A stretch of 64,000 bases of DNA, taken from assembly GCA_002701385.1 (NCBI GenBank), contig NZVD01000071.1, positions 10,394 through 74,393 of the forward strand. Direction: 5' to 3'. The position numbers were made by a program, and so were the translations under genes. Shown here one piece after another: positions 1,663 to 57,803 of the stretch; the first letter of the stretch is position 1, and the number at the start of each line of letters is the position of its first letter. Below the pieces are notes generated by a model that saw nothing but the letters and a program-made list of their open reading frames with translations, did no database searches and was not told the DNA's origin. The DNA is from Rhodopirellula sp. (lineage in GTDB: Bacteria; Planctomycetota; Planctomycetia; Pirellulales; Pirellulaceae).

Positions 1663-1739
1663 GAATGATTCCTATGGTGTGGTATGAAAAGTTAACAGCG
1701 ATTTTAATTCTTGCGCGTTTTATGTACAAGCATCAGACC

Positions 1740-2612: not shown

Positions 2613-2650
2613 CGAGCCATTCTCATGTGAAAGAAGAAGTTCTAGTGGAA

Positions 2651-2709
2651 CCCGAAGTCGGTTCGGGCAAACATGGTAAAGTTTGAGGCTTGATGAATTG
2701 CCTCAAACT
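2651..2709. promoter_or_regulatory. Two adjacent inverted repeats between divergent genes
   Basis: In the 256-bp spacer between the divergent epimerase and HtrA genes there are two consecutive hairpins. The first pairs CCCGAA (2651-2656) with TTCGGG (2662-2667). The second is a perfect 10-bp repeat, AGTTTGAGGC (2680-2689) with GCCTCAAACT (2700-2709), around a 10-base loop. Neither is followed by a T-run on either strand, and both lie upstream of both genes, so a terminator is unlikely. An operator for the divergent promoters or a 5' UTR structure of the minus-strand transcript is more plausible. The rest of the spacer (2710-2868) is AT-rich, with several weak -10-like hexamers near 2770-2790. 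Confidence 0.5.
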
Positions 2710-2868
2710 CAGGAAAAAGTACGACATCCCAACTACAAGCGCAGCAATCAGGAGTAATAATTATTAATACTACCATTTTGTATTATATTCAATGGAACTA
2801 CGCCCAAATGGATTTGGCGTAGTTGGAATGGCAGGAAGCTCTGACCTATATAGATTTAGTGAAACCGA

Positions 2869-4962
2869 ATGAGCCTATTCAACCTATACGCTGGGCGACA
2901 GACTTCTAGTTACCTGTCACTACTAATATTACTGACACTAAGCACACTGGCCGTGGCGCAACCGGAAGCTGGTGACGAGCGAGCTATTGTCGTTCCCGTT
3001 TCAGATAAATTGGTTGACTTTTTCTCCGGCTCGACGCCAAGTTCTATCGATGAACTTGAAGCAGCGCAGGCACATGTCCGTGAACTTGCCGAGACAGTGC
3101 AAAAAACCGTAGTCGGTGTTGGTGTTGGCGCCGCACAGGGTAGCGGTGTGATTATAAGTCGTGATGGATATGTGCTAACCGCTGCTCATGTTTCGGGGCG
3201 TCCAGGAAGAATGGCTCGGCTATTCCTTTCCGACGGCCGAATGGTTCCTGCCCGCACTTTGGGATTGAACAAAACTTTTGATGCCGGATTAATGAAGATC
3301 GCTATTGACGACTGGGAAGATCAAAACTGGCCGCATGCAGACATGGGGTCATCGGTTGATGTCGAGTTAGGTCAATGGGTTATGGCTGTAGGACATCCCG
3401 GCGGATTTCAGGCGGACCGTAATCCGGTAGTTCGCTTGGGAAGAATTGTTCACACATACAAAGACGTGCTTACCTCAGATTGCACACTCATCGGTGGCGA
3501 TTCAGGTGGGCCTCTATTTGGTATGGATGGCCGCGTTGTTGGGATTCATAGTCGAATCGGACCTGAACTCAGCCACAATGTTCACGCTCCTGTTGATTCC
3601 TACAAGGAAGGTTGGGAGCGAATGGCCAATGAGGAGCAATGGGGACAGATGCCCGGAGCTCCTTTAGTTGGGGTAACCGGAGGGCAGAACCCAGACAAAG
3701 CGGAAATTGAGAGCATCGTTCCTGGTAGTCCGGCTGCCAAAGCAGGGATCCGCAAGGGAGATATCATCATCGAATTTGCAGGCAAAGACATTTCGACTTT
3801 TGACTCGTTAGTCAATGTTGTGGGAATTCACCGTCCCGGAGAAGAGGTAATGGTGAAGATTCTACGAGATGACAAGGAGATCGATATTAAATTGACGATT
3901 GGTCAGGCTAATGGTCGCATTCCGGATGCTCCTGAAGAAGATAGTAGTCTGCAGGAACAGCCAGTAGCTGCTGAATATAACAGTTGGCTTAGTTACATTG
4001 CCGCTTATAAACCAGCTACGATTCACCAAAAGAATCATTCCGAGATCGTCAATGCATTTACACCGGTGGTGACGAAAGCCGACAATTCCACCGTGAAGGT
4101 ATTGGACAAGAAACGCCCGCTGGCCTTAGGTGTCATTGTGAGTGCTGACGGCTATGTACTAACCAAAGCAAGTGAAATCCTCAGTGATGAACGTGAATTT
4201 CCTTTGATTTGTGAAGACTCTCGAGGCAACAAGTATGAAGCCAGTTTTGTTTCACACCGTCCCAAAGTGGATCTGTTGATGTTGAAGCTGGATGCTCGGA
4301 AGCTGAAACCAATTAAATGGAATACGGATCCACAACCACTGGGAAGTTGGTTGGTTTCCCCCACCAATAATGGGAAACCGTTAGCCATCGGCGTGGTAAG
4401 TGCGCACCCACGTGCTATTCGTGGCGGGCTGTTGGGTGTCTTCTTAGGTGAAACACCAGATGGTGTCCGCGTTGAACAGGTCTTTCCTAATACAGCTGCC
4501 GCCCGTGCCAAAATGGCGCGAGGTGACATTATTCTTAAAGTCAATGAAGTTGAAATCATGAACCGGGAGCACTTGATCGAAACGGTTCGCAGTCACTTGC
4601 CCGGGGAAAAGATCACACTCCAGGTGCGACGAGGAGATGAGCAATTAGATATCGATGCGGTGTTAGGTCGGGAAGAAGATATCGCTGGTAGCCGAGCTGT
4701 GGAACAACAGAATCTCGGAGGGCCACTGAGTAGTCGCCGTAGTGGATTCCAATCCGTATTACAGCACGATACGGTTCTGCGTCCGGAACAATGTGGCGGG
4801 CCTATACTCAATACGAAAGGTCAGGCCATTGGAATCAATATTGCCCGTGCCACGCGAGTGTCTTCCTACGCTCTACCTGCGACGGTTATCGTCGCACTCA
4901 TCGAAGAAATGAAAACACGTGATGCGGATGCAGTAAACGAACCGGGCGACGCAGCCAATTAG
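2869..4962 (+). CDS. Secreted HtrA-like serine protease with second, degenerate protease half
   Basis: A 697-aa exported protein with a signal peptide (hydrophobic 14-30, cleavage likely after AVA-30). Residues 85-250 form an HtrA/DegP trypsin-like domain with an intact triad: His107 (TAAHVS), Asp138 (FDAGLM) and Ser212 (GGDSGGPLFG). A PDZ domain follows (about 265-345). A second trypsin-like half starts near 395, but the His position is Ser435 (LTKASEI) and the Ser position is Cys642 (EQCGGPIL). A second PDZ (about 520-600) sits between the two barrels of this half. HtrA proteins degrade or chaperone misfolded envelope proteins, and the second half is probably non-catalytic and structural or regulatory. 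No clear Shine-Dalgarno precedes the ATG. It converges on ruvX, 21 bp away. Confidence 0.9.
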   Translation: MSLFNLYAGRQTSSYLSLLILLTLSTLAVAQPEAGDERAIVVPVSDKLVDFFSGSTPSSIDELEAAQAHVRELAETVQKTVVGVGVGAAQGSGVIISRDGYVLTAAHVSGRPGRMARLFLSDGRMVPARTLGLNKTFDAGLMKIAIDDWEDQNWPHADMGSSVDVELGQWVMAVGHPGGFQADRNPVVRLGRIVHTYKDVLTSDCTLIGGDSGGPLFGMDGRVVGIHSRIGPELSHNVHAPVDSYKEGWERMANEEQWGQMPGAPLVGVTGGQNPDKAEIESIVPGSPAAKAGIRKGDIIIEFAGKDISTFDSLVNVVGIHRPGEEVMVKILRDDKEIDIKLTIGQANGRIPDAPEEDSSLQEQPVAAEYNSWLSYIAAYKPATIHQKNHSEIVNAFTPVVTKADNSTVKVLDKKRPLALGVIVSADGYVLTKASEILSDEREFPLICEDSRGNKYEASFVSHRPKVDLLMLKLDARKLKPIKWNTDPQPLGSWLVSPTNNGKPLAIGVVSAHPRAIRGGLLGVFLGETPDGVRVEQVFPNTAAARAKMARGDIILKVNEVEIMNREHLIETVRSHLPGEKITLQVRRGDEQLDIDAVLGREEDIAGSRAVEQQNLGGPLSSRRSGFQSVLQHDTVLRPEQCGGPILNTKGQAIGINIARATRVSSYALPATVIVALIEEMKTRDADAVNEPGDAAN

Positions 4963-4983
4963 TTGGATGAACTCTGTCGCTGG

Positions 4984-5412
4984 TTAACGTTCCAGATAGG
5001 CTTGCAGCATTTGTTGGGCCGCAATCATATCTAGTCGTTTCTTGCGTTTACTGGCTTTGATATTGCCCGCGATCATCAGTTCGTGGGCCAGCGACGTAGT
5101 AAATCTCTCATCATGAAATGTGATCGGTCGCGCAGTGACTTCTGCTAACCAAGCTCCGAATTCTCGGGCTTCCTGACTTTTGGCTGTTTCATAGCCATCG
5201 GTGCTGATCGGTAGGCCGACAACAAACCCGACAATCTCTTCTTCCTTGACGAGCTCATTAAAACGTCGGGCATCGGCATCCAGATCCCGACGTTGATAAT
5301 TCTCAACGGGGCTGGCAAAGGATTGGCCTTTATCACAAATAGCAATGCCGATCCGTACGGTACCAAAGTCGATACCAGCCAGGCGGCCGGTCTGAGGGAA
5401 TGCGTTAGTCAC
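4984..5412 (-). CDS. ruvX: RuvX/YqgF-family Holliday-junction resolvase-like nuclease
   Basis: A 142-aa protein of normal family length. It has the RNase H-like acidic motif GIDFGTVRIGIA (residues 13-24, Asp15), the VVGLPISTDG segment (64-73), DERFTT (101-106) and the C-terminal acidic residue in LDMIAAQQML (Asp128). YqgF proteins are implicated in 16S rRNA 5'-end processing and have been proposed to resolve Holliday junctions. The start is a GTG at 5412; no ATG lies upstream in frame near the first strand. Downstream partner of the lipase-like gene: its start lies 8 bp after that gene's stop, so the two are probably one transcript. It converges with the HtrA gene. Confidence 0.9.
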   Translation of the reverse strand: MTNAFPQTGRLAGIDFGTVRIGIAICDKGQSFASPVENYQRRDLDADARRFNELVKEEEIVGFVVGLPISTDGYETAKSQEAREFGAWLAEVTARPITFHDERFTTSLAHELMIAGNIKASKRKKRLDMIAAQQMLQAYLER

Positions 5413-5420
5413 GTTTGAGT

Positions 5421-6380
5421 TTACTTGAGGGGAGTACGGGTTGGTTCCGATTCAAAGTAACCACTTTTTAAGAATCGATGGACGTATTGTAATGTCTCAT
5501 GTTGGTTCATAATTCGGGTGTGAGTGGAATTGACAGTGCGAAAGTCACGGGCGCCCACGAGTTTCGACTCTTCCACCGTGACCACTAGATCGTTGGGACC
5601 ATCAAGTAAGGGATTTCGTACCAGATTACTTGTCATGACCCCTGCGAGAATGCCAAATTCAAAATCGGGTGTTGCCAGCTGTAATTCAAGATCATCAAAG
5701 CCGTTAGCTAGTTCCTGCCCAGAGATTCCCCAAATCGACTCGAATAGGATATTGTCGTTTACAGCTCGGCCGAATGACGAGCCTTGATTAGGCGGAGCGA
5801 GCATAACCATACGTTTGATTCGTTGGTCGGTGTGAGTTTTCAAAAAACGCCGGACAATAATATTCCCCATGCTGTGCCCCACCAATTGAATTTCCGCATC
5901 TTTTGGGAAATGCGAGATGAGTTCATTGAATTTCTCTGCATGCTGGCTGATTGTCTGTCGCGTACTAGCGTAACTCCAACTGATCACATCGGCTGCCTGT
6001 CTATCACGCAGATATTTTCCCAGCGGTTCCAGAGAGTTCTTTGTGCGAATGACGCCATGCAGTAATACGATGATCTTTTGCTTATAAGGTCGAATCGTTC
6101 CGTCCTGAACCAAGGTGTCGAATCGTTCCTGACATTGATCGTAGGAACCCCAGGCGCGTCGCACGTTCTTACCATCTAGAACTCGGCAGTGGTTGGTATA
6201 GTGATTTCGCTGAATACGCCAATCACCTTGGACGCGGATATCAGTCCAAAACTGTTTTCCGCCAAGCGTCTTAAACTGCAGATTGATATTCAAGGGAGAT
6301 TCATCATTGGATATTGCAAAATTGGAATGTAAAAAAGCGAGTGCCAATGTTGCTAGAGTTTTACGTCTCGAGGAATTCAT
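5421..6380 (-). CDS. Secreted alpha/beta-hydrolase (lipase/esterase-like)
   Basis: A 319-aa protein from the ATG at 6380 (a TTG codon directly before it is also open). The N-terminus looks like a short signal peptide (basic SSRRK, then a hydrophobic run to about residue 22). LLHGV (106-110) is the oxyanion loop and VGHSMGN (167-173) the nucleophile elbow with Ser170. The pattern matches triacylglycerol-lipase-like hydrolases such as the PGAP1/EstA group. A VLHGVIRT-type loop followed by a short lid is visible, and a late GPNDLVVTVEES segment probably carries the catalytic Asp. The substrate is unknown. It lies 12 bp downstream of manC and 8 bp upstream of ruvX, which suggests one minus-strand operon running from 8866 to 4984. 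Confidence 0.85.
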   Translation of the reverse strand: MNSSRRKTLATLALAFLHSNFAISNDESPLNINLQFKTLGGKQFWTDIRVQGDWRIQRNHYTNHCRVLDGKNVRRAWGSYDQCQERFDTLVQDGTIRPYKQKIIVLLHGVIRTKNSLEPLGKYLRDRQAADVISWSYASTRQTISQHAEKFNELISHFPKDAEIQLVGHSMGNIIVRRFLKTHTDQRIKRMVMLAPPNQGSSFGRAVNDNILFESIWGISGQELANGFDDLELQLATPDFEFGILAGVMTSNLVRNPLLDGPNDLVVTVEESKLVGARDFRTVNSTHTRIMNQHETLQYVHRFLKSGYFESEPTRTPLK

Positions 6381-6392
6381 CAATATACAATC

Positions 6393-7460
6393 CTATAGGT
6401 GTAAGCTATCCTGTTTGGATTCTAAAAGGCGGACTAATTTCCGTACGGATTCCTCCTCCTGTTTATTCGCAACCAATGTGGCGTCCTCCGTATGGACAAT
6501 GATTAAATCACTCACGCCAATGGTGGCAACTAAATGATCTTTCGACGATTGGATAATCGAATTAGTAGTTTGGATTCCGGCGTGCTTCCCAACGACGGTG
6601 TTGTTGTTTGCATCGGTAGGGAACAATCTGGATAAAGCCTGCCAGCTTCCGATATCATCCCACTCGAAGGGAGCTTCGATCACCAACACGTTAGCGTGGT
6701 GTTCCATAACAGCATAGTCAATGGAAATGCCCTCGATAGCTGTGAATTCCCGTTTTATAACATCATGGAAATCCGCTTCGCCACGTCGCTGTACTATCCG
6801 ATTGATGCGTAGAATCATGTCCGGTTGATACTGTTCTAATGCTTCGAGGATCGCCCGGGCCTTCCAGACAAAGATCCCGGAATTCCAGTAATATCCACCC
6901 TCGTCTAGATATTGTTTTGCCGTATCGATAACAGGCTTTTCTTTGAATTGCTCCACTCGAAAAACATCGGAATTAACGGATTCGCCTCGTTGAATGTATC
7001 CATAGGATTCTGCCGGCCTGTCAGGAGTAATTCCAAAGGTAATCAGCCGGGAAGGATCCTGTTCTACCAATTTATGGGCTTTCGTAACGGCCTCATGAAA
7101 TGCCTCGACCGGTTGAATGATATGATCACTGGGCATCACAATCATGGTCGCATCCGGATCTTCAGCCGCAATCAAGCCAGCAGCCAGACCAATACATGGA
7201 GCGGTATCACGTTTCGCAGGCTCGCCGATAATTGACTTGCTGCTTAAAGCTGGGAGTTGATCTTCAATGGCTGAAACCAACGATTGATTGGTGATGACCG
7301 AGATGTTATCAACCGGCACGAGCGAATCCAATCGATCAATGGCTTGTTGAATCAGACTGCGCTCACCTCCAAAACTCAATAATTGTTTGGGGATAGCCAT
7401 ACGGCTTAATGGCCAAAAGCGAGTGCCTGCTCCACCTGCCATCACTACGGCATGTATCAT
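6393..7460 (-). CDS. manC: Mannose-1-phosphate guanylyltransferase
   Basis: A 355-aa nucleotidyltransferase. The N-terminal signature VVMAGGAGTRFWPLSR (residues 5-20) and the later FKEKP motif are diagnostic of GMP enzymes, which make GDP-mannose from mannose-1-phosphate and GTP in the cytoplasm. At 355 residues it lacks the C-terminal phosphomannose-isomerase half of bifunctional ManC/AlgA proteins, so it is the monofunctional type. The ATG at 7460 overlaps the stop of the upstream UDPGP gene by 4 bp (ATGA arrangement), and GGAGG sits in the end of that gene at good spacing, indicating translational coupling. GDP-mannose and the product of the upstream gene would feed envelope polysaccharides. 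Confidence 0.92.
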   Translation of the reverse strand: MIHAVVMAGGAGTRFWPLSRMAIPKQLLSFGGERSLIQQAIDRLDSLVPVDNISVITNQSLVSAIEDQLPALSSKSIIGEPAKRDTAPCIGLAAGLIAAEDPDATMIVMPSDHIIQPVEAFHEAVTKAHKLVEQDPSRLITFGITPDRPAESYGYIQRGESVNSDVFRVEQFKEKPVIDTAKQYLDEGGYYWNSGIFVWKARAILEALEQYQPDMILRINRIVQRRGEADFHDVIKREFTAIEGISIDYAVMEHHANVLVIEAPFEWDDIGSWQALSRLFPTDANNNTVVGKHAGIQTTNSIIQSSKDHLVATIGVSDLIIVHTEDATLVANKQEEESVRKLVRLLESKQDSLHL

Positions 7461-8866
7461 GATCCCTCCGGATGAACCAGGTAGGTGTTTTCAGTAATCT
7501 GGTCGGGTACATCAGACCGTTCTAAGAGATGAGGCAAATCAACAGCATAGGTTGGATGTATTTCCACAATAACTTCATCTGCGACAGAACATCCAGCCTG
7601 TTGTAACCAACTCCGATGTAGCTCACTGATACCGCGTCGGCTCGTTCGTGGTGTACTAAAATTAGCAGACGAAGCGTTCTTTACTGGAGCAAATACAGAT
7701 TCCCGAGCGGCTTCCACTGTTAGTGTTCGCTGAGCTAGTGGCAATAGATCGAATATAAATCTCTCAAACTTGATGGCATTAGGTACGTCCGGCTCGACAG
7801 GATTTCCCTGATGATCAATGTGAGCCACTTGCTTATGTGCAAAGTGATAAGGTAGCCCGGACGCTGAATTGACTATTTCCTGAAGGAATCGTGTTTGAAA
7901 AACATGGACAGCAATGTTGGCGGCCCAGAACTTAAGCTGCCCCTGAGCATCCTCAGACGTAGCCAAATCATTTGGCATTTCACTGTATTCAATAATCTGC
8001 GTGCGATCGTCTACCGCTACGATATTACCTGTTTTTTCGTCCGGAGACATTTTGGCAATGGTTTGTAGTGTTACCTGAGATTCGGAAAGTGAATGATAGC
8101 CCAGCAAGGCCGGTGAGCAGGTGGGGGACAGGGGGTTGTCAATTTGCCCGTAAAAGAGTGTGTCGATATTTTGTGACTCACATCGCTCTAAAATGCCAGC
8201 AGATTGCATTGCTTCGAGCATTCCTCCATGTCCGTTGGGACTAGTGAATATCTCCGCCTTGTCTTTCATTAGGAGTTTACCCGTCCGAGCGTCCACTGCA
8301 GGTATTGCTGGTTGGCAGAAAAACTCGACGCGATCACGACGTTGAAAAAAGTCATTTCCTTCAAAGTAACAAACAGTTTCCTCGTGTACTGTCGGACTCG
8401 TCATTACAAACAAAGGGATTTGAGTTTCGTATTTCACTTCATATCCGGCGATTTTGTCGAGCACAAACTGGAAGAGTGTTCGTTCTGACAAAGGCCCAAT
8501 CGGAAACAATCCCTTGGGATGAGGAAAGCCAAGCCGGCTCCCTTGTCCGCCGGCAACAATCACCACGCCTACTCTTCCATCACGAAGTAATTTCTCTCCT
8601 TGGGCATACGCAGTTTCAGGAGAAATCGTAGCGTCTTGTTGTAGCCTGATTGAATTGGGTGGTGTGAGCTTAGAAAGATCCGGTGCGACTTCAGCCTGCT
8701 GAGAAAATTGCTCGAAAAGTGACCGTATACCCGGCAGATCAATTTGTTCAATTTGTGCTGCCAGTTGACGCTTGTCGTTGTCGTTGATTGATTGCCAATG
8801 TTGCAATACATGCTGTTGGTCGCATGCATTCAGTTGCTCGATAAGTTGAGTAAAGAGTGTATCCAT
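7457..8866 (-). CDS. UDPGP-type UTP-sugar-1-phosphate uridylyltransferase (UAP/UGP-like)
   Basis: A 469-aa protein with the UDP-sugar pyrophosphorylase signature VAGGQGSRLGFPHPKG (about residues 103-118) and a GHGG/QIDNPL core (GGMLEA and YGQIDNPLSP). This matches the eukaryote-type UDP-N-acetylglucosamine pyrophosphorylase/UDP-glucose pyrophosphorylase family rather than bacterial GlmU or GalU. Such enzymes join UTP with GlcNAc-1-P, GalNAc-1-P or Glc-1-P to give the UDP-sugar. Which sugar is used cannot be read from the sequence. No strong Shine-Dalgarno is visible before the ATG at 8866. It is the first large gene of a tight minus-strand operon with manC, the lipase-like gene and ruvX. Confidence 0.88.
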   Translation of the reverse strand: MDTLFTQLIEQLNACDQQHVLQHWQSINDNDKRQLAAQIEQIDLPGIRSLFEQFSQQAEVAPDLSKLTPPNSIRLQQDATISPETAYAQGEKLLRDGRVGVVIVAGGQGSRLGFPHPKGLFPIGPLSERTLFQFVLDKIAGYEVKYETQIPLFVMTSPTVHEETVCYFEGNDFFQRRDRVEFFCQPAIPAVDARTGKLLMKDKAEIFTSPNGHGGMLEAMQSAGILERCESQNIDTLFYGQIDNPLSPTCSPALLGYHSLSESQVTLQTIAKMSPDEKTGNIVAVDDRTQIIEYSEMPNDLATSEDAQGQLKFWAANIAVHVFQTRFLQEIVNSASGLPYHFAHKQVAHIDHQGNPVEPDVPNAIKFERFIFDLLPLAQRTLTVEAARESVFAPVKNASSANFSTPRTSRRGISELHRSWLQQAGCSVADEVIVEIHPTYAVDLPHLLERSDVPDQITENTYLVHPEGS

Positions 8867-8889
8867 GTCGAATTGGGAAGGAGCAATCC

Positions 8890-9003
8890 TTATAGCTCAC
8901 CGCGTACCCAGAGGTAGGCAATGTAGGCTAACGCCGGGAACAATACAAAGATTAACCCGTATGTGAATATGGAGGTCCAGATTTTTCGAGGCCATCTTGC
9001 CAT
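8890..9003 (-). CDS. 37-aa single-pass membrane peptide
   Basis: An ATG at 9003 opens 37 codons ending in TAA at 8890, 23 bp before the UDPGP gene. The peptide begins MARWPRKIW, continues with a roughly 22-residue hydrophobic helix (IFTYGLIFVLFPALAYIAYL) and ends in a short charged tail (WVRGEL). The positive-inside N-terminus, clean transmembrane helix and position in an operon support a real gene. There is no convincing Shine-Dalgarno. I do not recognise a family. It could be a small envelope-complex subunit or a leader peptide. Confidence 0.45.
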   Translation of the reverse strand: MARWPRKIWTSIFTYGLIFVLFPALAYIAYLWVRGEL

Positions 9004-9048
9004 AGGAGCGTCTTAGTTCATTACAACAAACGGAAGTCTGATTCTATG

Positions 9049-9897
9049 CTATGCTGCTTGCGAGGATTCGGCAAACACTTCCACCTGAATCACGACTTCC
9101 ACAGGCTCGTCATAAATCTGTGTTAATTTCAGTTCCAGACGAAGTCCAAATCCCTGAACTTCGCCTACCATAATCTCTACGCTGGGACCTTCCAATGAGG
9201 TTACATCGACATGTGGAATTCCGGGTAATTCTGGAATAAATGCCAGATGAATTGTTTGGAATCGCTGGCCTGCAGCAAACAGTGCGCGTTGAGAAGCTGA
9301 GATTGACTCACCATACTCATCCCGAGAGCGTATCCAAGACTGGTTTGTTTGCGCGGCGATTTCACCAGATGTCCCAACCGCTCCCAATGGACTATCGACG
9401 GAATCAGAAGTTTCCAGGGAACTCAGCAATCGAGCTTCGATGTCCTCCTCGATGACATGATCCGTTTCCGCTGGATTCGTCGTTACCGGTGGAGCCTGTC
9501 TGCCGTTGACTGTCCACCAAACCACTTCGTTAACAACACTCAGTACCCAAATAATCGCAGTCGCTTCTGAATATGCAGAGGTTACCGTTAGTAATAAGGA
9601 GACTTGTAAAAGTGTGAGTGTTTGCAGATACCATCCCCATTTAGCCAACGGCGAACGAGCCGGTTTACTAGGAAGTCCGCATAACCCACGTAGACATCCG
9701 ATTCCCAAAATTGTACCTAAGCCAATCGCTATGGTTTGAATGGTCTGGATGGGAGTGGAGTAAAAATGACTTCGGGCTAATAGTAGAAATGCAGCAAAGC
9801 AGGCAAACAGACAGGGAATGATCACTGACGTATTACGAAGTACATCCAGGAACGATGTTGGACGTTCACCTGCACTTTCACTAGCTAAACTGTTCAT
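9049..9897 (-). CDS. Hypothetical multi-pass membrane protein
   Basis: I do not recognise a family. From an ATG at 9897 the product is 282 aa; the frame stays open to a TTG at 9993, but the extra residues have no start support. Four hydrophobic segments occupy about the first 130 residues (VIIPCLFACFAAFLLL, TIAIGLGTILGIGC, LQTLTLLQVSLLLTV, ATAIIWVLSVVNEVVWW), followed by an acidic, soluble C-terminal domain rich in beta-type residues (HVDVTSLEGPSVEIMVGEV onward). The pattern suggests an inner-membrane protein with a cytoplasmic or periplasmic beta domain. It lies 45 bp upstream of the 37-aa membrane peptide on the same strand. Confidence 0.65.
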   Translation of the reverse strand: MNSLASESAGERPTSFLDVLRNTSVIIPCLFACFAAFLLLARSHFYSTPIQTIQTIAIGLGTILGIGCLRGLCGLPSKPARSPLAKWGWYLQTLTLLQVSLLLTVTSAYSEATAIIWVLSVVNEVVWWTVNGRQAPPVTTNPAETDHVIEEDIEARLLSSLETSDSVDSPLGAVGTSGEIAAQTNQSWIRSRDEYGESISASQRALFAAGQRFQTIHLAFIPELPGIPHVDVTSLEGPSVEIMVGEVQGFGLRLELKLTQIYDEPVEVVIQVEVFAESSQAA

Positions 9898-10098
9898 TAA
9901 ACTACCGCACTGATTGAAGTGCCCGCTGGAAAGAAAACTCAGCAGGTAGGGTACTGCAGAGCGGTAGTGGGTGTAAAGACAGGCGTTAGCCAATTATCCA
10001 TTTAACCAGTGGGCCATTTAGACAGTTAAACAATTAACAAGCCGGAGTTGCAGAGCAAGGGAGCTTGTCGGTTCCACCTTCGCCCTGCAGGTTTGGGT

Positions 10099-10169
10099 GG
10101 ATAAACTCGGTCCTCCGCTATAGTAGCAACGAGTTTATCCGTCGGAGTGCTACGAAGGGGTACGAAGTC
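10099..10169. repeat. Compact structured element with overlapping inverted and direct repeats
   Basis: A perfect 11-bp inverted repeat, GGATAAACTCG (10099-10109) and CGAGTTTATCC (10130-10140), encloses a 20-base loop. Two further complementary pairs cross it: CTCCG (10113-10117) with CGGAG (10143-10147), and GTAGCA (10123-10128) with TGCTAC (10148-10153). TACGAAG is then directly repeated at 10151-10157 and 10161-10167. The crossing pairs allow alternative hairpins or a pseudoknot. It resembles a dispersed palindromic repeat unit of the CTACGAAGG type, but copy number elsewhere cannot be tested here. Confidence 0.5.
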
Positions 10170-10187
10170 GGATTAAGCGCTTGTAAG

Positions 10188-10210
10188 AAAAATGGGTAGG
10201 CCGAAAGGCC
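10188..10210 (-). terminator. metK: Weak rho-independent terminator candidate after metK
   Basis: On the minus strand, just past the metK stop, GGCC-TTTC-GGCC (10199-10210) is followed after a short spacer by five T residues (10188-10192). The stem has only four GC pairs, so this is a weak candidate. Confidence 0.28.
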
Positions 10211-10226
10211 GAAGCTAAGTAACCAG

Positions 10227-11393
10227 TTAACCGTTGAGCAACTGCTTCAACTCTTCAGCTCGGTCCGTGTTTTCCCAGCTAAACTCACTACGGCCGAAAT
10301 GACCACCAGCAGCTGTTTTTCGATAGATCGGTTTTCGCAAATCCAAATAATCGATGATGCCACCAGGCGATAATGGGAAAAACTCGCGAACAACGTCACA
10401 AATACGAGCATCATCCACTTGTCCTGTCCCTTGCGTATCGACATGCACACTGACAGGATCAGTAACCCCGATGGCGTAGGCCAACTGGACCTCACAACGT
10501 TCGGCTAATCCTGCTGCCACAATATTCTTGGCAACATGGCGAGACATATAAGCAGCACTGCGATCGACTTTGGTTGGATCCTTTCCACTGAAGGCTCCAC
10601 CTCCGTGACGGCCCCAGCCTCCATAGGTATCCACAATAATCTTGCGGCCGGTTAATCCACAGTCCCCGTGAGGACCACCGGTTACAAAGCGACCGGTGGG
10701 ATTGACGTGGTAAGTGATATCCCCTTGAACCATATTTTCCGGCAGCAGAGGGTTGATGATATCATTGACGATGAATTGTTGGATATCTTCGTTGCTCACC
10801 TCAGGACTATGCTGAGTACTGACGACTACGGTGTCGATGCGCACAGGTGTCAGCCCATCGTATTCGACGGTAACCTGGCTTTTACTATCCGGGCGGAGCC
10901 AAGAGACTTCATTGCCAAACCGAGCATCATTCAGACGATCCAGAATTTTGTGAGACAACGCGATGGGAAGCGGCATGAGTTCCTCTTCCGTGTCACGGCA
11001 GGCAAATCCAAACATCAGGCCCTGGTCTCCAGCCCCGATCTCTTTACCACTATCACTGTTTTCATCCACTCCCTGAGCGATGTCCGGACTTTGCCGGTCG
11101 ATGGAGGTTAGGACTGCACAGGTATCGGCACAAATTCCCATTTCATCATCGGTATACCCGACGTCACGAATAACTCCACGAACGACTTCTGGATAATCGA
11201 TTTGAGCTTTCGTGGTAATTTCACCAGCAATGATTGCCATTCCGGTTGTTACCATCGTTTCACAGGCAACTCGGCTATAAGGATCCTGTTCAAACAGAGC
11301 ATCCAGTACTCCGTCCGAAATCTGGTCAGCCAGTTTATCAGGGTGACCCATACTTACAGATTCGCTAGTGAACAAGTATTTTCCAGATGTCAC
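10227..11393 (-). CDS. metK: S-adenosylmethionine synthase
   Basis: A 388-aa enzyme of normal length that makes S-adenosylmethionine from methionine and ATP in the cytoplasm. The family signatures are intact: [18 protein letters not shown] near the N-terminus (ATP/metal site), [12 protein letters not shown] (the P-loop-like hexapeptide region) and [16 protein letters not shown] (second signature, catalytic Lys and Asp). The start is a GTG at 11393, because the conserved Lys-Tyr-Leu-Phe-Thr-Ser start of the family follows directly and no ATG lies upstream in frame. A GAAGGA sequence about 10 bases upstream fits as a ribosome binding site. A promoter with a perfect -10 box lies about 50 bp upstream, so metK is probably transcribed alone. 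Confidence 0.97.
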
Positions 11394-51503: not shown

Positions 51504-51595
51504 ACAAGGCGGCCCTATTTGCAATTGGGGTGATTCTGTGATTGCAAGAATTGTATTGACTTATTTAGTTCATTGATTTTAGAGGATCAATTGTG

Positions 51596-53098
51596 ATGTT
51601 TAGTAAGAGAATTGCGCGCGGAATTCTGTGCGTTCTGTTTTTAGCTGGATTGCCGATGGCTAGTTGGGCAGAAGATGTTGCTCCGGCCGCGGAGCAGAAT
51701 GTTGAGTTGGCACCTGGTGAATCAGCAGACGTGTCCACTGAGGAACAGTATGAAAGCACAGGCTTAAGTCCGGAAGAAGAATCTCCCGAATTGATTGACG
51801 AGTTAGAGTTAAGCGAGGCTGTTGCTGCTGCAGCTTCAGCCGCAAACAATGGCTGGATGCTGGTTTGTTGTGCTTTGGTATTATTTATGACAGCTCCGGG
51901 ATTGGCTCTGTTTTATGGTGGACTCGTCCGCAAAAAGAACGTCGTCAGTGTTCTCATGCAATGTATGTTTCTCATGGGACTGATGACGGTGGTCTGGGCC
52001 ATTTGTGGATACACATTTGCTTTTGGTGGAGATGGGCAATCGCATCCGTTCATTGGAAGTTTGGAGTACCTGTTTTTGGATGGGGTGAGTATGGATCAAG
52101 CCACTCTACCAACGGGAAAAGGCTCGGCCATATCGGATCTCACATTCGCTTTGTTCCAGGGAATGTTTTTCATAATCACACCGGCATTGATTTGTGGGGC
52201 ATTTGCAGAACGTATGAAATTTAGCACGATGGCTGTCTTCTCCATCCTTTGGGGAATTCTTGTATACTGTCCGATCTGCCATTGGGTTTGGGATGGAGGA
52301 ATTATTGGTCACGGTGACCAGGCCTGGGCTGGTGGTGCCTTAGACTTTGCAGGCGGAACAGTTGTTCATATCAGTTCCGGAGTTTCTGCCTTGGTTGCGT
52401 GTATCCTTATCGGTAAACGAATGGGATTTGGCTCTGAACCGATGCCTCCACATAATCTCACTTACACAGTGTTAGGGGCAGCTATGCTTTGGGTAGGATG
52501 GTTTGGATTTAATGCCGGTAGCCAACTGGCGGTTGACGATGTTACCGTCAGCGCTTTTGCCGTGACTCATTTTTCTGCTGCGGCGGGTGTGATCGGCTGG
52601 ACATTGTTCGAATGGGCTGTCCATAAGAAACCAACCGCATTGGGTGCAGCTTCCGGAGCGGTTGCTGGCCTGGTTTGTATTACTCCAGCTGCTGGGTTCG
52701 TCCAGCCAATGCCAGCGCTCCTTATGGGGTTCATCGCTGGTGCCCTGTGTTTCTTTGCCGTGACAACGATGAAGAACAAGCTTGGTTATGACGACTCTTT
52801 GGATGCCTTTGGAGTTCATGGAGTCGGAGGCACGATCGGTGCTGTCTTGACAGGTGTGTTTGCTACGGTTGAGGTGAATACCGGATATGGTAGTCACTTA
52901 GGGATCGTGGATGACAATTATTCTTTACTTTGGGGCCAAATTGTGGCGGTCTTAGTAACGGTGATTTATGCCGGTGTGGTTTCGTATATCCTGCTTAAGA
53001 TTTTGGATAAAGTCATGGGCTTGCGAGTGGATGAGGAATCTGAAACACGCGGACTTGACCTCAGCGAACATGGTGAAGAAGGCTATATCTGGCTGTAA
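51596..53098 (+). CDS. amt: Ammonium transporter (Amt)
   Basis: A 500-aa membrane protein from the ATG at 51596; the GTG one codon earlier is also possible, and AGAGG (51581-51585) fits either. A signal peptide (about 1-23, SWA) and an acidic, Glu-rich linker (about 25-75) precede the Amt core. The two pore histidines are visible in HISSGVSAL and FGVHGVGGTIG, and the twelve-helix pattern with NGGxFF-type lumen residues is intact. It moves ammonium across the inner membrane. The P-II gene follows 87 bp later across a strong hairpin, the usual amt-glnK arrangement. The N-terminal linker of about 50 residues is longer than in most homologues. Confidence 0.95.
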   Translation: MFSKRIARGILCVLFLAGLPMASWAEDVAPAAEQNVELAPGESADVSTEEQYESTGLSPEEESPELIDELELSEAVAAAASAANNGWMLVCCALVLFMTAPGLALFYGGLVRKKNVVSVLMQCMFLMGLMTVVWAICGYTFAFGGDGQSHPFIGSLEYLFLDGVSMDQATLPTGKGSAISDLTFALFQGMFFIITPALICGAFAERMKFSTMAVFSILWGILVYCPICHWVWDGGIIGHGDQAWAGGALDFAGGTVVHISSGVSALVACILIGKRMGFGSEPMPPHNLTYTVLGAAMLWVGWFGFNAGSQLAVDDVTVSAFAVTHFSAAAGVIGWTLFEWAVHKKPTALGAASGAVAGLVCITPAAGFVQPMPALLMGFIAGALCFFAVTTMKNKLGYDDSLDAFGVHGVGGTIGAVLTGVFATVEVNTGYGSHLGIVDDNYSLLWGQIVAVLVTVIYAGVVSYILLKILDKVMGLRVDEESETRGLDLSEHGEEGYIWL

Positions 53099-53524
<426 letters not shown>

Positions 53525-53546
53525 TAGCCGCTAAACATTTAGCATA

Positions 53547-53574
53547 AGGCTGGCAGTAACATGCCAGCCTTTTT
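53547..53574 (+). terminator. Rho-independent terminator of the P-II gene
   Basis: AGGCTGGCA (53547-53555), a 6-base loop and TGCCAGCCT (53562-53570) form a perfect 9-bp stem followed by TTTT. It also stands directly next to the stop codon of the convergent amidohydrolase gene, where it may limit read-through from the other side. Confidence 0.88.
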
Positions 53575-54540
53575 CTATGCATCGAAATCTATCAAATCAA
53601 GAATTAGGTTTTCATATCGCGGCCCGTATTGATAAGCTCGCTTGATATTCAGGTCTAAATCCAGAATGTTCTTACGGTACTTGGGAAATAATCCGACGTG
53701 TTTACGATGAGGAATACACGAGGGTGGAATCGGGTAATCACTGCCGTGGAGAATACGACTGGTAATCGATTCGGGCTCTTTGGATAACTTCCCGCAGGCG
53801 TTTAGGCGAACTAATCCTGCCATGACAGCCGTATCGCCATAGAGGTTGTCGTACTTGTGCATCATTTCGATGAAATGGGGATAGTAATCTTCTCGATCCC
53901 AAAAGGCACAGGTGCCACAATGTGCCGCGATGATATTTCCACCCTGCTCTAAAGCGCGGGATAGCTTTTTGGGATCAGTAAACTTTTGAGAAACCACCTG
54001 GCAGGAGTGCTCGTAACCGGTGTGAAAGATCAGTGTGATCCCTATCTCCGCCGCATGACGATAGAATGCTTCGAACTCGGGTAGATCGGGACTGACTCCC
54101 TGAATGGCGGTGTGGATTTTGACAAGCTTACAACCAGCATCTCGCACGCGATCGAGTTCCTTAATTGAATCCTTTCGCATCGGGTTGATACTCGTACAGG
54201 GAATAATCTTGTCGGATCGCGTCGCCAGCTCTAATACGTAGTCATTAGAGACATAAAAATGAGTTCTCTCATAGTCAATGTCGATTCCGTCTTTGTAGAT
54301 AGCATCCTGAGCAAATAAGACGATGTAATCCAGCTCGGTAGATTCCAAGTCCTTAAAGAGGCGATTGTAGATTTTCTCGGAGATCGTATCGCCACGCTCT
54401 TTCTTTATTCCGGATAAGCGTAGTAACAACTTAGAGATGATCGACTTTTGTGTTCGTTTAGAGAGAAAGCCCTCTTTAGGGTTCTCTCCCCAACAAAATA
54501 TGTGAGTGTGCGAATCGACACTGAGGTTGGTGAAATCCAT
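53575..54540 (-). CDS. Amidohydrolase-2-like metal-dependent hydrolase
   Basis: A 321-aa TIM-barrel protein from the ATG at 54540; the open frame continues to a TTG at 54549, but AGGAAG lies 12 bases before the ATG. VDSHTHIF (about 8-15, first metal histidines), IFHTGYEH, IIAHCGTC and LHGSDYPIPP supply the His and Asp residues of the amidohydrolase-2 (ACMSD/4-sulfomuconolactonase-like) family. These enzymes decarboxylate or hydrolyse small acids with a divalent metal. The substrate is unknown. It starts 36 bp downstream of the stop of the acyltransferase fusion gene (54576) and is convergent with the P-II gene. Confidence 0.85.
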   Translation of the reverse strand: MDFTNLSVDSHTHIFCWGENPKEGFLSKRTQKSIISKLLLRLSGIKKERGDTISEKIYNRLFKDLESTELDYIVLFAQDAIYKDGIDIDYERTHFYVSNDYVLELATRSDKIIPCTSINPMRKDSIKELDRVRDAGCKLVKIHTAIQGVSPDLPEFEAFYRHAAEIGITLIFHTGYEHSCQVVSQKFTDPKKLSRALEQGGNIIAAHCGTCAFWDREDYYPHFIEMMHKYDNLYGDTAVMAGLVRLNACGKLSKEPESITSRILHGSDYPIPPSCIPHRKHVGLFPKYRKNILDLDLNIKRAYQYGPRYENLILDLIDFDA

Positions 54541-54575
54541 ATCCGGCAAGTACTTCCTGATTGGTTGGGTGTTTC

Positions 54576-57500
54576 TTAGGTGTGAGCGGATGGAACGGAT
54601 TGAGTGTGGTCTGATTTGGATCGCATGAACAGGACAAATTTAGTCAGGGCATAGCCGATCGCAGCCACGACAGATAGATAAAACAAAACGATCACTTTCG
54701 TACCTACCAGAGCGAAAATGCCGTGGCGTTTGTATTCCATGATGAAAGTGATGCTGGAACGATTGAGTGTTTCGGCGAACCGTTCAAAAGCTTCGCCCTT
54801 ATGATTACCCTCGTAGATCTCCAGTGTCGACGAGTTGTTAATGCGGTCAGAATCCAACCAGGCGATCAGTTTGTACTGCTGTTTTTCTTCTTTATTACGA
54901 ACTTGTTGAACAAAATGACGAGCCAATTCATGGGCAGGAAGCGTCTTGCGTCCCATGACAGTGATGATCGGAAAGTGAAGAGCCCCAGCATTGCCGCCAT
55001 AACAACGATAAATGACTTCCGTGCATACAAGTGTGTTCGGAGTTTCGAAATCGAAGTTAAAGTCGTACTCTCTGCCTTCGTAAAAGTAAGCAGCGGCAAT
55101 CGCCTCAGCTCGCTCGTCGTCTGGAAGATTAAGCGGCCTCAATGCAAAGACAGAAGAAGCCTCACCGATACTGTGGTCGACAGTGTTATGGTAAACGCCT
55201 TCACTGATTGCCTCCATGATTTGACGTGAATTGAGCTTTTCATTACCTCCCTTTTTCAAGTCTTCGACCAGAGCAAACATTCGGTCGGCATGGGTTAAGC
55301 CGTCGACGGATGGTGTTTCAGATGTCTCGAGATCCTTTTCCTCATTCGCCATGGAAGTCAGTTCTTTAACGACGTCGTCGAGAAGGCCATCTTCGGCAAG
55401 TTCCTCGGGAGTACCAATATACAATGCTCCGTGTGGCCAGTATCCAGGGAGGAATGCATTCGACGAATACCAGTCCCGTCGTTCAATGAGGATGTCGCCT
55501 GGCTCAAGTAACTCGTGAAACTGGTCGACTTTTTCCGAATCGATCTTGTGATTAGTGATATCGTCGGTCTTCTTGATGCGAAAATCACCAATCTGAGTTG
55601 CTACAAACTGCTGAATGCTTAAATAGGTATCCACACTGCGACGTTTTGCTTCACTGAGAGCCGCTTTGACACTGTCGCTGAAAGCGTACTCAGGATTTTC
55701 AGCAATCGTAGCCTTAGCCTTGGCAATTAATTCGAGCAGGGCTTTGGTGCTGGCTGGACTGTCTTCGTTGGTCCGAGCGGTATCGAATCCGTATCCGTCC
55801 ATTGCCGAGGCAATGTATCCCTGGTAGCTCGGGTCGATTAATTGTTCATTGACCTGGACAATCAAATTGGCCGGGATGCCATAGGTATCATCCTGTTGAT
55901 TGAGATATTTTTCCAGAGTGCTATCCGCCTTATAAGTCACGGCAAATCGGATGGACATCTGATGACGTAATAGTAACGCTGCGGTGAACAACATCGCTCT
56001 GCGTTGGCGTTGTTGCGGATCATCACCCTGCATTTCGTTATCAGGGCTGTAGTCTGCCACGATCTTCCAGAGGTCGTCGCGAGCTTGGAAAAAACTATGA
56101 AGTAAAGCACTCACTTCTCGGCGGTTATCTTGGTCTTCTAACGGAAACAGGCCCTGGTTGTATTTCTCGAGCAATTCAAGGCTGCGAGCGTGTGTAGCTT
56201 TAGCTGTCTCAGCAATCCGTAGGACTTCCTGCTCTTTCTTTCCGATTTGTGCATCCAATTCTTCCGGGGTGACTTTCGTCACGCGGTATCCAGCCTGTTC
56301 GGTAGTAACTGTGGGGAATAGATATTGGTTGGCAAGAATATAAAAGACGAATGCCACCATTAATAGTAAGATCGAGCTTACTGTCGACGCGAGTAACATC
56401 ATCAGCGGTTTGATGGAAGGTGGAGTAGGTCGGGGTACTACTTCTGCATATTTGTCAGCGTATGCAATCAGTGTGTTACGGATCTGTTGAAGCTCTTCAC
56501 GTAACCGAAGTAGTCGACTTCGCTGTAGTGTCGCTCGGACTTGATGCCCTAGATGCACCATTGTCTTGGTGAAGTAGGGCCAATACTTCAATGAGATCGT
56601 CCCTGACAGGATTAGTAGGAAATTTGTCACCGTGATGAGAACAAATTGGTCCGTTTCGCTTATGACGGTGTAATCGATGAGTCCGTACCAAATGAGATAA
56701 ATTGGGATCCCAATTCCGATTCGTGCCTGGGCGGTCGTCTTCATTCCCTCTTGTTGTACTTTGCCCGCAAAAAAACGTGTGATCACAAAGGGAACAATAT
56801 TTCCCAATGTCCCTACGGTCGCTGGAATGAACCAGATGATTAGGTGGAGCAATTTTCCCAGAATGCTAACCGTGGTTTTGAGAGAACTCCGTTGCAGAAT
56901 GGGGTCATCAATTACCAGGCCGGCAGATTGGACTGTTTGGTGATAGGCTTTGATTTGCCCAACGACTTCTTCACCAACTTCCGGTTGTTCCTTGTAAAAA
57001 TAGTTCAATGCATCAGCAATTCGTTTACGACGCATCAATTTTGGAACTTTAAGAGAGGCTTTATGTTTGGAATGGTCCACTAATGTTTCAAGATCATCGA
57101 GTAATGGGTCCCATTCGGCGTTATCTAAGTGAACAATGACAGATTTCAAACGATCTTCAATCGTGCTAGTCAGTTGTCGACGAAGGACCTTGTCTTCCGT
57201 GGGAGTTTTACCTTCCGAAGCGTTTTCTTCTGCAAAGGTTTTCAGTAGGACGGGCTCACCAACATTGATCCAGACTTTACTCCCCAACTGTTGCTTGCGT
57301 TCATAGTTAATACCGAGGGGAATAATAACAAGATCGTCGACACCACCCTCTAAGGCTTCAAGGGCAATACGGGAGGCACCGCCACGGACCAGGCCAAGTT
57401 GTCGCAAATCACTTGAGACGCCTTCCGGGAAGATTCCCATAGCACGGCCTTCTTTTAGTCCTATGACAACTCGTCCCAGACTCTTTTGGTTTTTCTTGAC

Positions 57501-57803
57501 CTGACTGGAGTCATCTCGGCCTCGATACGCTGGGACCATGCCCAATGCATGCATGAGCGGACCGATAACAGGTGCCTTAAAGAGCGGGGCTTTGGCCATG
57601 AAACTAACAGGCCGTTTGGCTGTAATCCCGATGAGTATGGGATCGATGAGCGAGTTAGGGTGATTCGCACAGAACAGAACCGGCCCATCAGCTGGAATCC
57701 GGTCGGAACCGGTGATTTGAATCTTTGGATAATACTTCTTGATGAGCGTATGGGCGACTTTTCTCAGTAGTCGTCCTATCAAAATCCCCGTATTCAGCAC
57801 CAT
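54576..57803 (-). CDS. Acyltransferase fused to YiiX-like permuted papain-fold domain
   Basis: A 1075-aa membrane protein. Residues 30-185 are a PlsC/LPLAT acyltransferase: catalytic HX4D is N-H48-PNSLI-D54, and FPEG (125-128) and the GxPA segment bind the phosphate. Helices follow near 320-345, 365-400 and 465-492, with an extracytoplasmic helical/coiled region (about 500-745). The C-terminal part (about 755-985) matches the YiiX/YebB permuted NlpC/P60 group: GDILIERRDW (769-778), H791 in PHGALYIG, and C927 in TLVCTEVIYRCY. A final membrane helix (about 1031-1060) ends the protein. The first half should acylate lysophospholipids; the second may cleave lipid amides or esters. The combination is unusual and suggests lipid remodelling. 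Confidence 0.87.
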   Translation of the reverse strand: MVLNTGILIGRLLRKVAHTLIKKYYPKIQITGSDRIPADGPVLFCANHPNSLIDPILIGITAKRPVSFMAKAPLFKAPVIGPLMHALGMVPAYRGRDDSSQVKKNQKSLGRVVIGLKEGRAMGIFPEGVSSDLRQLGLVRGGASRIALEALEGGVDDLVIIPLGINYERKQQLGSKVWINVGEPVLLKTFAEENASEGKTPTEDKVLRRQLTSTIEDRLKSVIVHLDNAEWDPLLDDLETLVDHSKHKASLKVPKLMRRKRIADALNYFYKEQPEVGEEVVGQIKAYHQTVQSAGLVIDDPILQRSSLKTTVSILGKLLHLIIWFIPATVGTLGNIVPFVITRFFAGKVQQEGMKTTAQARIGIGIPIYLIWYGLIDYTVISETDQFVLITVTNFLLILSGTISLKYWPYFTKTMVHLGHQVRATLQRSRLLRLREELQQIRNTLIAYADKYAEVVPRPTPPSIKPLMMLLASTVSSILLLMVAFVFYILANQYLFPTVTTEQAGYRVTKVTPEELDAQIGKKEQEVLRIAETAKATHARSLELLEKYNQGLFPLEDQDNRREVSALLHSFFQARDDLWKIVADYSPDNEMQGDDPQQRQRRAMLFTAALLLRHQMSIRFAVTYKADSTLEKYLNQQDDTYGIPANLIVQVNEQLIDPSYQGYIASAMDGYGFDTARTNEDSPASTKALLELIAKAKATIAENPEYAFSDSVKAALSEAKRRSVDTYLSIQQFVATQIGDFRIKKTDDITNHKIDSEKVDQFHELLEPGDILIERRDWYSSNAFLPGYWPHGALYIGTPEELAEDGLLDDVVKELTSMANEEKDLETSETPSVDGLTHADRMFALVEDLKKGGNEKLNSRQIMEAISEGVYHNTVDHSIGEASSVFALRPLNLPDDERAEAIAAAYFYEGREYDFNFDFETPNTLVCTEVIYRCYGGNAGALHFPIITVMGRKTLPAHELARHFVQQVRNKEEKQQYKLIAWLDSDRINNSSTLEIYEGNHKGEAFERFAETLNRSSITFIMEYKRHGIFALVGTKVIVLFYLSVVAAIGYALTKFVLFMRSKSDHTQSVPSAHT

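What the first reader, a model, noticed from the sequence alone, without database searches (positions are those of the whole stretch)
54576..57803. Acyltransferase fused to a YiiX-like permuted papain domain
One polypeptide combines a PlsC-type HX4D acyltransferase with a C-terminal domain carrying the order His791 (PHGALYIG) then Cys927 (LVCTEVIYRC), the hallmark of circularly permuted NlpC/P60 enzymes (YiiX/LRAT-like). The related LRAT/HRASLS enzymes move acyl chains between lipids. A coupled acyl-transfer and acyl-removal machine spanning the membrane, with three or more helices between the domains, would be a new lipid-remodelling design.
Basis: partly seen in the sequence, partly recalled or inferred. 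Interest (0 to 1): 0.72.

Follow-up and report, generated by a model that had tools for sequence, protein, structure and literature searches.

The report
Two-headed lipid acyl enzyme in planctomycetes
One bacterial protein joins an enzyme that probably attaches fatty acids to a lipid backbone with a second, very different enzyme that probably removes or moves fatty acids, with membrane spans between them; the combination recurs in several planctomycete families and was not described in the papers we could search.

Summary
The 1075-aa ORF is real (54576-57803, minus strand). It carries Pfam Acyltransferase (PF01553) and Peptidase_C92/YiiX (PF05708) domains, both above cut-off, with membrane spans and a helical module between. 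One detail is wrong: motif I is HX5D (H48...D54), not HX4D; HX5D is the published mark of fungal GPATs. H791, E864, Y913 and C927 are invariant in 26 of 26 fusions and 21 of 21 free-standing relatives. The fusion occurs in all nine genomes of the genus examined (one cut by a contig end) and, as one ORF, in 18 of 342 sampled Planctomycetota genomes from 7 families. Charge bias of the span before the C92 module (23 of 26, none reversed) favours acyltransferase inside, C92 outside. An amidohydrolase gene follows. Both AlphaFold jobs failed, so the papain-like fold rests on sequence. PlsB was not detected and PlsX/PlsY only in one relative; the fusion is the only HX5D enzyme among 9 acyltransferases of this genome. 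Best reading: a bifunctional lipid acyl enzyme, probably working on both membrane faces; substrates and coupling are inferred. New architecture of known enzyme kinds.

The parts
54576..57803 (-). fusion gene, 1075 aa
57309..57725 (-). acyltransferase domain PF01553, residues 27-165
   Evidence: E 1.1e-20; N-half profile hits 5KYM (PlsC) E 1.6e-9 and 8E4Y (human GPAT1) E 9.8e-5
57642..57665 (-). motif I NHPNSLID (HX5D), residues 47-54
   Evidence: motif class from PMC4207751
57420..57431 (-). motif III FPEG, residues 125-128
   Evidence: 26/26 fusions, 11/11 N solos
56589..56876 (-). hydrophobic region residues 310-405: stretch 310-345 (possibly a hairpin), then spans about 357-380 and 387-405
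   Evidence: the 357-380 span is clearer in homologues
56343..56399 (-). membrane span before the C92 module, residues 469-487 ('TM-D')
55593..56276 (-). helical module residues 510-737, no Pfam match above cut-off; shared with free-standing C92 relatives
54945..55508 (-). Peptidase_C92 (YaeF/YiiX) domain PF05708, residues 766-953
   Evidence: C-half profile hits 2IF6 (YiiX) E 2.3e-4; hhalign to E. coli YiiX probability 93.5 over 46 columns
55431..55433 (-). His791
   Evidence: 47/47
55212..55214 (-). Glu864, candidate third member of the triad
   Evidence: 47/47; equivalence to Glu64 of BcPPNE/YiiX (PMC3142127) inferred from order
55065..55067 (-). Tyr913 (YDF), aligned with the YDF of YiiX
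   Evidence: catalytic Tyr of YiiX described in PMC3142127, residue equivalence inferred
55023..55025 (-). Cys927, predicted nucleophile
   Evidence: 47/47; aligned with the YiiX Cys
54663..54719 (-). C-terminal membrane span, residues 1029-1047
   Evidence: hydropathy 1.6 or more in 18 of 26 fusions
53575..54549 (-). downstream amidohydrolase (PF04909); 26 bp between the genes with the TTG start that the ORF tool picked; putative operon partner
53546..53571 (.). 10-pair terminator-like hairpin between the amidohydrolase and the convergent P-II-like gene
   Evidence: reported for the + strand only; number of such sites in the region is not above shuffles

Best explanation
A membrane-anchored bifunctional lipid acyl enzyme. 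The N-terminal half is an HX5D, fungal-GPAT-like acyltransferase on the cytoplasmic face that moves an acyl chain from acyl-ACP or acyl-CoA to glycerol-3-phosphate or a close relative. Membrane spans carry the chain across, and the C-terminal YiiX/C92 module, most likely extracytoplasmic, uses Cys927/His791/Glu864/Tyr913 to form an acyl-Cys intermediate and then hydrolyses or transfers an acyl chain of a membrane lipid. Shown: ORF, both domains, invariant catalytic residues, purifying selection, recurrence. Inferred: topology, acyl donor and acceptor, extracytoplasmic substrate, and that the two activities serve one pathway.
For: Both Pfam domains above cut-off in the window protein and in all six further fusions scanned. 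C92 catalytic residues invariant in 26/26 fusions and 21/21 C solos. Motif I HxNx(phi)(phi)D and motif II (phi)P(phi)xR as listed for fungal GPAT-B in PMC4207751; HX5D in Sct1/Gpt2 in PMC7613133. Only HX5D enzyme among 9 PF01553 proteins of the own genome, in a genome without detected PlsX, PlsY or PlsB. YiiX was modelled with a fatty acid next to its Cys (PMC3142127); LnsA, Lnb and Tox-Act1 act on acyl chains. TM-D is more positive on its N side in 23/26 fusions, reversed in 0; a C92 solo placed in the fused-type clade starts like a lipoprotein (L130; long branch, place unsure). Halves co-occur: 31 of 53 N-half genomes also have the C half among 342 (Fisher p 8e-17; genomes are related, so p is optimistic). 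dN/dS 0.05-0.31 for window versus L002. Single cases of lipid-type neighbours: a PLD-family gene 71 bp upstream of the G031 fusion and PAP2 beside the L037 N solo.
Against: No activity was tested. Both AlphaFold models are poor (pLDDT 51 and 53) and the fold searches listed no papain-like match. The 15-row solo clade shows no hydrophobic N-terminus (12 of 15 have one hydrophobic stretch inside the helical module), and in the split G189 pair neither half keeps TM-D and no export signal is seen: the C92 module may also work inside the cell. The C-terminal span shows no charge bias. Motif III (FPEGVSSD) does not fit the fungal classes and the gap between motifs I and II, 35 residues by my count, is just under the GPAT-B range of 36-40. 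Gene neighbours differ between most families. 22 of 53 N-half genomes lack the C half, 20 of 51 C-half genomes lack the N half, and 13 of the 31 with both do not have them in one ORF.
Confidence: 0.55

Rival explanations
1. Both domains lie on the cytoplasmic side and hand an acyl chain from one active site to the other (acyl editing or salvage), with no trans-membrane coupling.
For: One clade of free-standing C92 relatives (15 rows) has no hydrophobic N-terminus; in G189 the halves are separate genes without TM-D; the stretch 310-345 may or may not cross the membrane, so the parity of spans is uncertain.
Against: Positive-inside bias of TM-D in 23/26 fusions, none reversed; solos grouped with the fusions that have a lipoprotein-like start (L130) or a signal anchor (L125).
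Confidence: 0.2
2. The C92 module is a protein N-acyltransferase or deacylase for lipoproteins or other acylated proteins, like LnsA or Lnb, and the acyltransferase half supplies or repairs the lipid donor.
For: LnsA is YiiX-like and needed for lipoprotein N-acylation (PMC7387801); DUF4105/Lnb is a permuted NlpC/P60 N-acyltransferase (PMC12994826); Xu et al. [quoted passage not shown]
Against: Lnt matches in 60 of 60 genomes (own included), 58 above cut-off, among them all nine of the genus, so N-acylation is not a missing function; no shared gene cluster was recognised as a lipoprotein-pathway gene (most clusters were not identified).
Confidence: 0.12
3. The N half is not a GPAT but a lysophospholipid, DHAP or other acyltransferase; the pair remodels existing lipids.
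For: A solo of the same family sits beside PAP2 (L037) and, in Persicobacter, an acyltransferase ORF overlaps a gene with patatin-like motifs (L185; name recalled); most relatives without the fusion also lack PlsX/Y/B matches, so the fusion is not the only route to phospholipids in the group.
Against: HX5D is reported as specific to fungal GPATs among the acyltransferases compared in PMC4207751.
Confidence: 0.25
4. The C92 module is a peptidoglycan or peptide amidase, as in canonical NlpC/P60 enzymes.
For: Superfamily membership; Pfam names the family 'amidase'.
Against: Xu et al. judge the narrow hydrophobic S1 site of YiiX unsuited to peptides and modelled a fatty acid in it.
Confidence: 0.07
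5. The fusion is an assembly artefact or a chance read-through.
Against: Same architecture in 26 ORFs from 7 families in separate assemblies, with dN/dS below 1 in both halves.
Confidence: 0.01

Closest known systems
Fungal GPATs Sct1/Gpt2 (HX5D, PF01553)
   Same: Motif I HX5D with HxNx(phi)(phi)D; motif II (phi)P(phi)xR; FPEG in motif III; several membrane spans
   Different: Motif III here is FPEGVSSD, not FPEG[T/G/I]S[H/Y]; about 27 residues between motifs II and III (inside the GPAT-B range 21-104, outside GPAT-A 97-132) and 35 between I and II (B: 36-40); bacterial; carries a C92 module
YiiX/YaeF, Peptidase_C92 (PF05708; PDB 2IF6)
   Same: His-Glu-Tyr-Cys order, PGD motif, YDF...C block
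   Different: Far below the NCBIfam YiiX equivalog cut-off (15.2 of 216 bits); preceded by a helical module and fused to an acyltransferase
LnsA/LnsB of Staphylococcus aureus (PMC7387801) and Lnb/DUF4105
   Same: Permuted NlpC/P60 enzymes in lipoprotein N-acylation; LnsA needs a second protein, LnsB
   Different: LnsB is not a PlsC-family enzyme (recalled: CAAX-protease-like); Lnt is present here
Tox-Act1 (PMC12994826)
   Same: Permuted NlpC/P60 enzyme that removes acyl chains from PG and PE
   Different: Secreted antibacterial effector; no fused acyltransferase mentioned in the passages read
Acyl-[ACP]-phospholipid O-acyltransferases (PRK08633-type) and OlsF
   Same: Multidomain proteins with a PlsC domain; weak NCBIfam matches to that domain only
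   Different: Scores far below cut-off (58 of 1221 bits for PRK08633, 13 of 620 for OlsF); the C92 part of the protein is not matched by them
LRAT/HRASLS
   Same: Permuted NlpC/P60 enzymes with acyl-transfer and phospholipase activity
   Different: Not matched by any search here; relation only at superfamily level, from the papers

Membership tests
PF01553 / PlsC-GPAT superfamily | Profile match above curated cut-off | tested here: met
   74.2 bits against 23
PF01553 / PlsC-GPAT superfamily | Motif I with invariant His and Asp, motif III FPEG | tested here: met
   H48/D54 in 25 of 26 fusion ORFs (one lacks the stretch) and 11/11 solos; FPEG 26/26 and 11/11
   Five residues, NHPNSLID; the other 8 PF01553 proteins of this genome are HX4D
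Fungal-type GPAT (HX5D) | HX5D, HxNx(phi)(phi)D | tested here: met
Fungal-type GPAT (HX5D) | Motif III FPEG[T/G/I]S[H/Y] (class B) or FPEGGSHD (class A) | tested here: not met
   FPEGVSSD; so 'GPAT-like', not filed as a member
Fungal-type GPAT (HX5D) | Acylates glycerol-3-phosphate | not testable with these tools
   needs complementation or enzyme assay
PlsB (TIGR03703) | Equivalog profile match | tested here: not met
   0 of 30 genomes have a match, own genome included; the model is narrow, it rings in 2 of 14 controls
Peptidase_C92 (YaeF/YiiX) | Profile match above curated cut-off | tested here: met
   41.4 bits against 27; 6 of 6 other fusions scanned too
Peptidase_C92 (YaeF/YiiX) | Permuted order His-Glu-Tyr-Cys, all conserved | tested here: met
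   H791, E864, Y913, C927 in 47/47; order as in PMC3142127
Peptidase_C92 (YaeF/YiiX) | Papain-like fold | tested here: inconclusive
   AlphaFold pLDDT 51 and 53 with 6 and 5 sequences; fold searches uninformative
Peptidase_C92 (YaeF/YiiX) | Hydrophobic acyl pocket and acyl-Cys intermediate | not testable with these tools
   needs structure or assay
YiiX equivalog (NF007458) | Score above equivalog cut-off | tested here: not met
   15.2 of 216 bits: a distant member of the C92 family, not YiiX itself
Lipoprotein N-acyltransferase replacement (Lnb/LnsA role) | Genome lacks Lnt | tested here: not met
   Lnt profile matches in 60/60 genomes, 58 over cut-off, own genome included

The most novel reading that the evidence does not exclude
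In lineages without detected PlsB, PlsX and PlsY, this protein is a glycerol-3-phosphate acyltransferase of fungal type whose activity on the inner leaflet is physically tied to an acyl-removing or acyl-moving cysteine enzyme on the outer leaflet, so that one chain senses or balances the two leaflets: a single-protein trans-bilayer synthesis-and-trimming machine, which may also feed the amidohydrolase encoded downstream.
Probability: 0.13. Interest if true: 0.82.

Novelty: new variant of a known kind. Interest (0 to 1): 0.5.

Why it matters
If right, one polypeptide carries two unrelated acyl-transfer chemistries (His-Asp and Cys thioester) on opposite membrane faces, an arrangement I know of nowhere else (recalled, not searched exhaustively). 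It gives a defined candidate for the first acylation step in planctomycetes in which none of the three textbook enzymes was detected, and it suggests that the poorly understood YiiX/C92 enzymes belong to lipid acyl metabolism, since a conserved fusion is a functional hint.

Tried and rejected
Structure prediction: full length with 6 sequences (A4) and residues 738-1028 with 5 sequences (A5) both came out at pLDDT near 50. Foldseek on the latter gave no hit below E 0.8, and VIA-align gave Z 5.3 at best, mostly over helices; no papain-like chain was among the rows, and I take nothing from this. Only window and the search for related loci sequences were given to that tool, as its rule asks, so the deeper set could not be used.

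Lnt replacement: rejected, Lnt matches throughout. Fusion unique to this genus: rejected. Amidohydrolase as a universal partner: rejected. Of 66 genomes searched, 22 matched at E 1e-20; an orthologue of 55% identity or more is in the genus (9 of 9), G031, both f82 genomes, and G009, which lacks the fusion. More distant copies (28-37%) in f64 (5 genomes), f76 (1) and f38 (2) lie on other contigs or far from the fusion or N half; the G207 copy (33%) lies next to an N half. Plasmid search: 25 records matched, none covering 80% of the query; in the 15 rows listed only the acyltransferase part matched. Promoter-like and terminator-like sites around the gene are no more numerous than in shuffles; the repeats are short and 71-76% alike, with no control given.

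Rows dropped before counts: I left out 19 of the 72 N-half genomes, those whose best E-value was between 3e-25 and 8e-22 or weaker (mostly ORFs of 213-300 aa, ordinary PlsC size). The L006/L013 (G001) copy is cut by a contig end and was left out of the 26. L150 (G252) lacks the first part of the N half in its ORF and counts as a gap there; it was left out of the N-half tree. The phylum scans were limited to genomes at least 80% complete.
Full report
WHAT IS THERE. The window lies in a planctomycete genome: the named relatives found are MAGs of uncultured Pirellulaceae and Planctomycetaceae (5 loci). The minus strand of 54576-57803 holds one ORF of 1075 codons. Pfam finds Acyltransferase PF01553 at 27-165 (E 1.1e-20) and Peptidase_C92 PF05708, the YaeF/YiiX family, at 766-953 (E 2e-10), both above the curated cut-offs. 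The acyltransferase motif, however, reads NHPNSLID, so His and Asp are five residues apart, not four.

CONSERVATION. A protein search of 60 genomes (own included) found the fusion in all nine genomes of the genus (in one, G001, it is cut by a contig end) and in one other genus of the family (G031, 36-37% identity). Across 342 Planctomycetota genomes (own included, at least 80% complete), the N-half profile matched 72 at E 1e-20, 53 of them strongly, and the C-half profile 51 at E 1e-8. In 18 genomes of 7 families both matches are in one ORF (in G252 that ORF lacks the start of the N half); a 19th (G158) is probably split by contig ends. Thirty-one genomes have both halves, 13 of them not in one ORF (Fisher p 8e-17, relatedness not corrected). 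In 26 fusion ORFs and 21 free C92 relatives, H791, E864, Y913 and C927 are invariant, as are PGD 768-770 and N782. H48 and D54 are kept in 25 of 26 fusions (the other lacks the stretch) and 11 of 11 free N halves; FPEG in 26 of 26 and 11 of 11. dN/dS is below 1 in every segment of three pairs; for window against L002 it is 0.05 (acyltransferase), 0.11 (membrane part), 0.20 (helical module) and 0.31 (C92).

HISTORY. A tree of C halves (50 rows) separates 15 free proteins from a group of 35 that holds all 26 fusions and 9 rows labelled solo, of which one (L181) is a contig-cut fragment and one (L176) comes from G189, where the two halves are separate genes. Two of the nine, L130 and L133, sit on long branches and their place is unsure. 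A tree of N halves (40 rows) shows the same main groups of fusions, f41/f46/f75/f76 against f1/f64/f82, so the halves have largely travelled together. The label fused/solo needs 4 changes on the first tree and 3 on the second; one fusion with later splits or losses is the simplest reading, not a proof.

TOPOLOGY. Hydropathy gives spans near 312-330, 387-405, 469-487 and 1029-1047, and a weaker one near 357-380 that is clear in homologues. The span before the C92 module has more Lys/Arg on its N side in 23 of 26 fusions and never the reverse (means 4.6 and 2.1 in 20 residues), which predicts acyltransferase inside and C92 outside. The C-terminal span, seen in 18 of 26, gives no clear charge signal. 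Against this stand the 15 free proteins of the other clade, which have no hydrophobic N-terminus (12 of 15 have one hydrophobic stretch inside the helical module), and the split G189 pair. In the fused-type group, L130 begins like a lipoprotein and L125 with a signal anchor.

FOLD. The C92 assignment therefore rests on sequence: Pfam, an hmmsearch match of the family profile to YiiX 2IF6 (E 2.3e-4), an hhalign match to E. coli YiiX (probability 93.5, 46 columns around Tyr and Cys), and the invariant four residues. Xu et al. (PMC3142127, passages) report the set His, Glu, Cys and Tyr and a density in YiiX that they modelled as a fatty acid; [quoted passage not shown]

WHAT THE HALVES SUGGEST. 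[quoted passage not shown] The window protein fits motifs I and II of its class GPAT-B but not motif III, and its gap between motifs I and II (35 by my count) is one under that class's range. In the own genome 9 proteins match PF01553; 8 are HX4D and only the fusion is HX5D. PlsY was found in 1 of 60 genomes, PlsX in 1 of 30 (the same genome, G041) and E. coli-type PlsB in 0 of 30; the control genomes ring for PlsY and PlsX in 8 of 14 and for the narrow PlsB model in 2 of 14. So the first acylation step in this group is unassigned by these models, and the fusion is a candidate where it occurs; relatives without the fusion must use something else. On the other half, permuted NlpC/P60 enzymes act in lipoprotein N-acylation (LnsA, PMC7387801, passages; Lnb, as told in PMC12994826) and as a phospholipase (Tox-Act1, PMC12994826, passages).

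SURROUNDINGS. An amidohydrolase (PF04909) starts 26 bp after the fusion (TTG start as picked by the ORF tool) and is followed by a 10-pair hairpin, reported as a + strand terminator-like site. It sits directly downstream in all nine genomes of the genus (in G001 beside the contig-cut 3' piece) and in both f82 genomes, and about 2 kb away on the other strand in G031. It is more conserved (85-99% among close congeners, 73-74% in G003 and G007, 54-57% in f82 and G031) than the fusion (60-92%, 46%, 36%). Its substrate is unknown. The G031 fusion is preceded by a PLD-family gene, and the free N half of G051 lies next to PAP2. No neighbour cluster is shared by all families; several contigs are short.

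CONCLUSION. This is a real, conserved two-enzyme protein, most likely a lipid acyl enzyme with one active site on each side of the membrane. The architecture appears undescribed in the library searched (one search listed 4 papers, of which I read passages of 3; searches listed none), but both parts belong to known enzyme kinds. Activity, substrates and coupling remain to be shown.

Noticed in passing
own genome and relatives (G000-G059): PlsY (PF02660) found in 1 of 60 genomes, PlsX (PF02504) in 1 of 30, PlsB (TIGR03703) in 0 of 30, own genome included; the first phospholipid acylation enzyme of this order is unassigned by these models.
   Followed up: partly
window 53575-54549: Amidohydrolase (PF04909) downstream of the fusion, better conserved than the fusion itself; substrate unknown.
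   Followed up: partly
L167 (G207) 1273-4037: A free N-half acyltransferase lies directly next to a distant copy (about 32%) of the same amidohydrolase.
   Followed up: partly
L150 (G252) 4032-10280: The fusion gene looks interrupted: an N-terminal piece and the rest are about 3 kb apart with an opposite-strand ORF between.
   Followed up: no
L175 and L176 (G189): The two halves are separate genes on different contigs, and neither keeps the span that joins them in relatives.
   Followed up: partly
L038, L039, L041, L048: Free C92 relatives of four genera of the family sit in a conserved row of four gene clusters (c11, c16, c15, c14; hisF- and pilT-like and a protein of about 250 aa; names recalled from sequence, not searched).
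   Followed up: no
L185 4001-6092 (Persicobacter plasmid CP012852): An acyltransferase ORF related to the N half overlaps a gene with patatin-like motifs (name recalled), another pairing of acyl addition with acyl removal.
   Followed up: no
window 51593-53524: Ammonium-transporter-like and P-II-like genes, convergent with the fusion-amidohydrolase pair (names recalled from sequence).
   Followed up: no
L145 1407-8096 (G084): A 2229-aa ORF that looks like a polyketide or PUFA synthase precedes the fusion by about 100 bp (name recalled).
   Followed up: no
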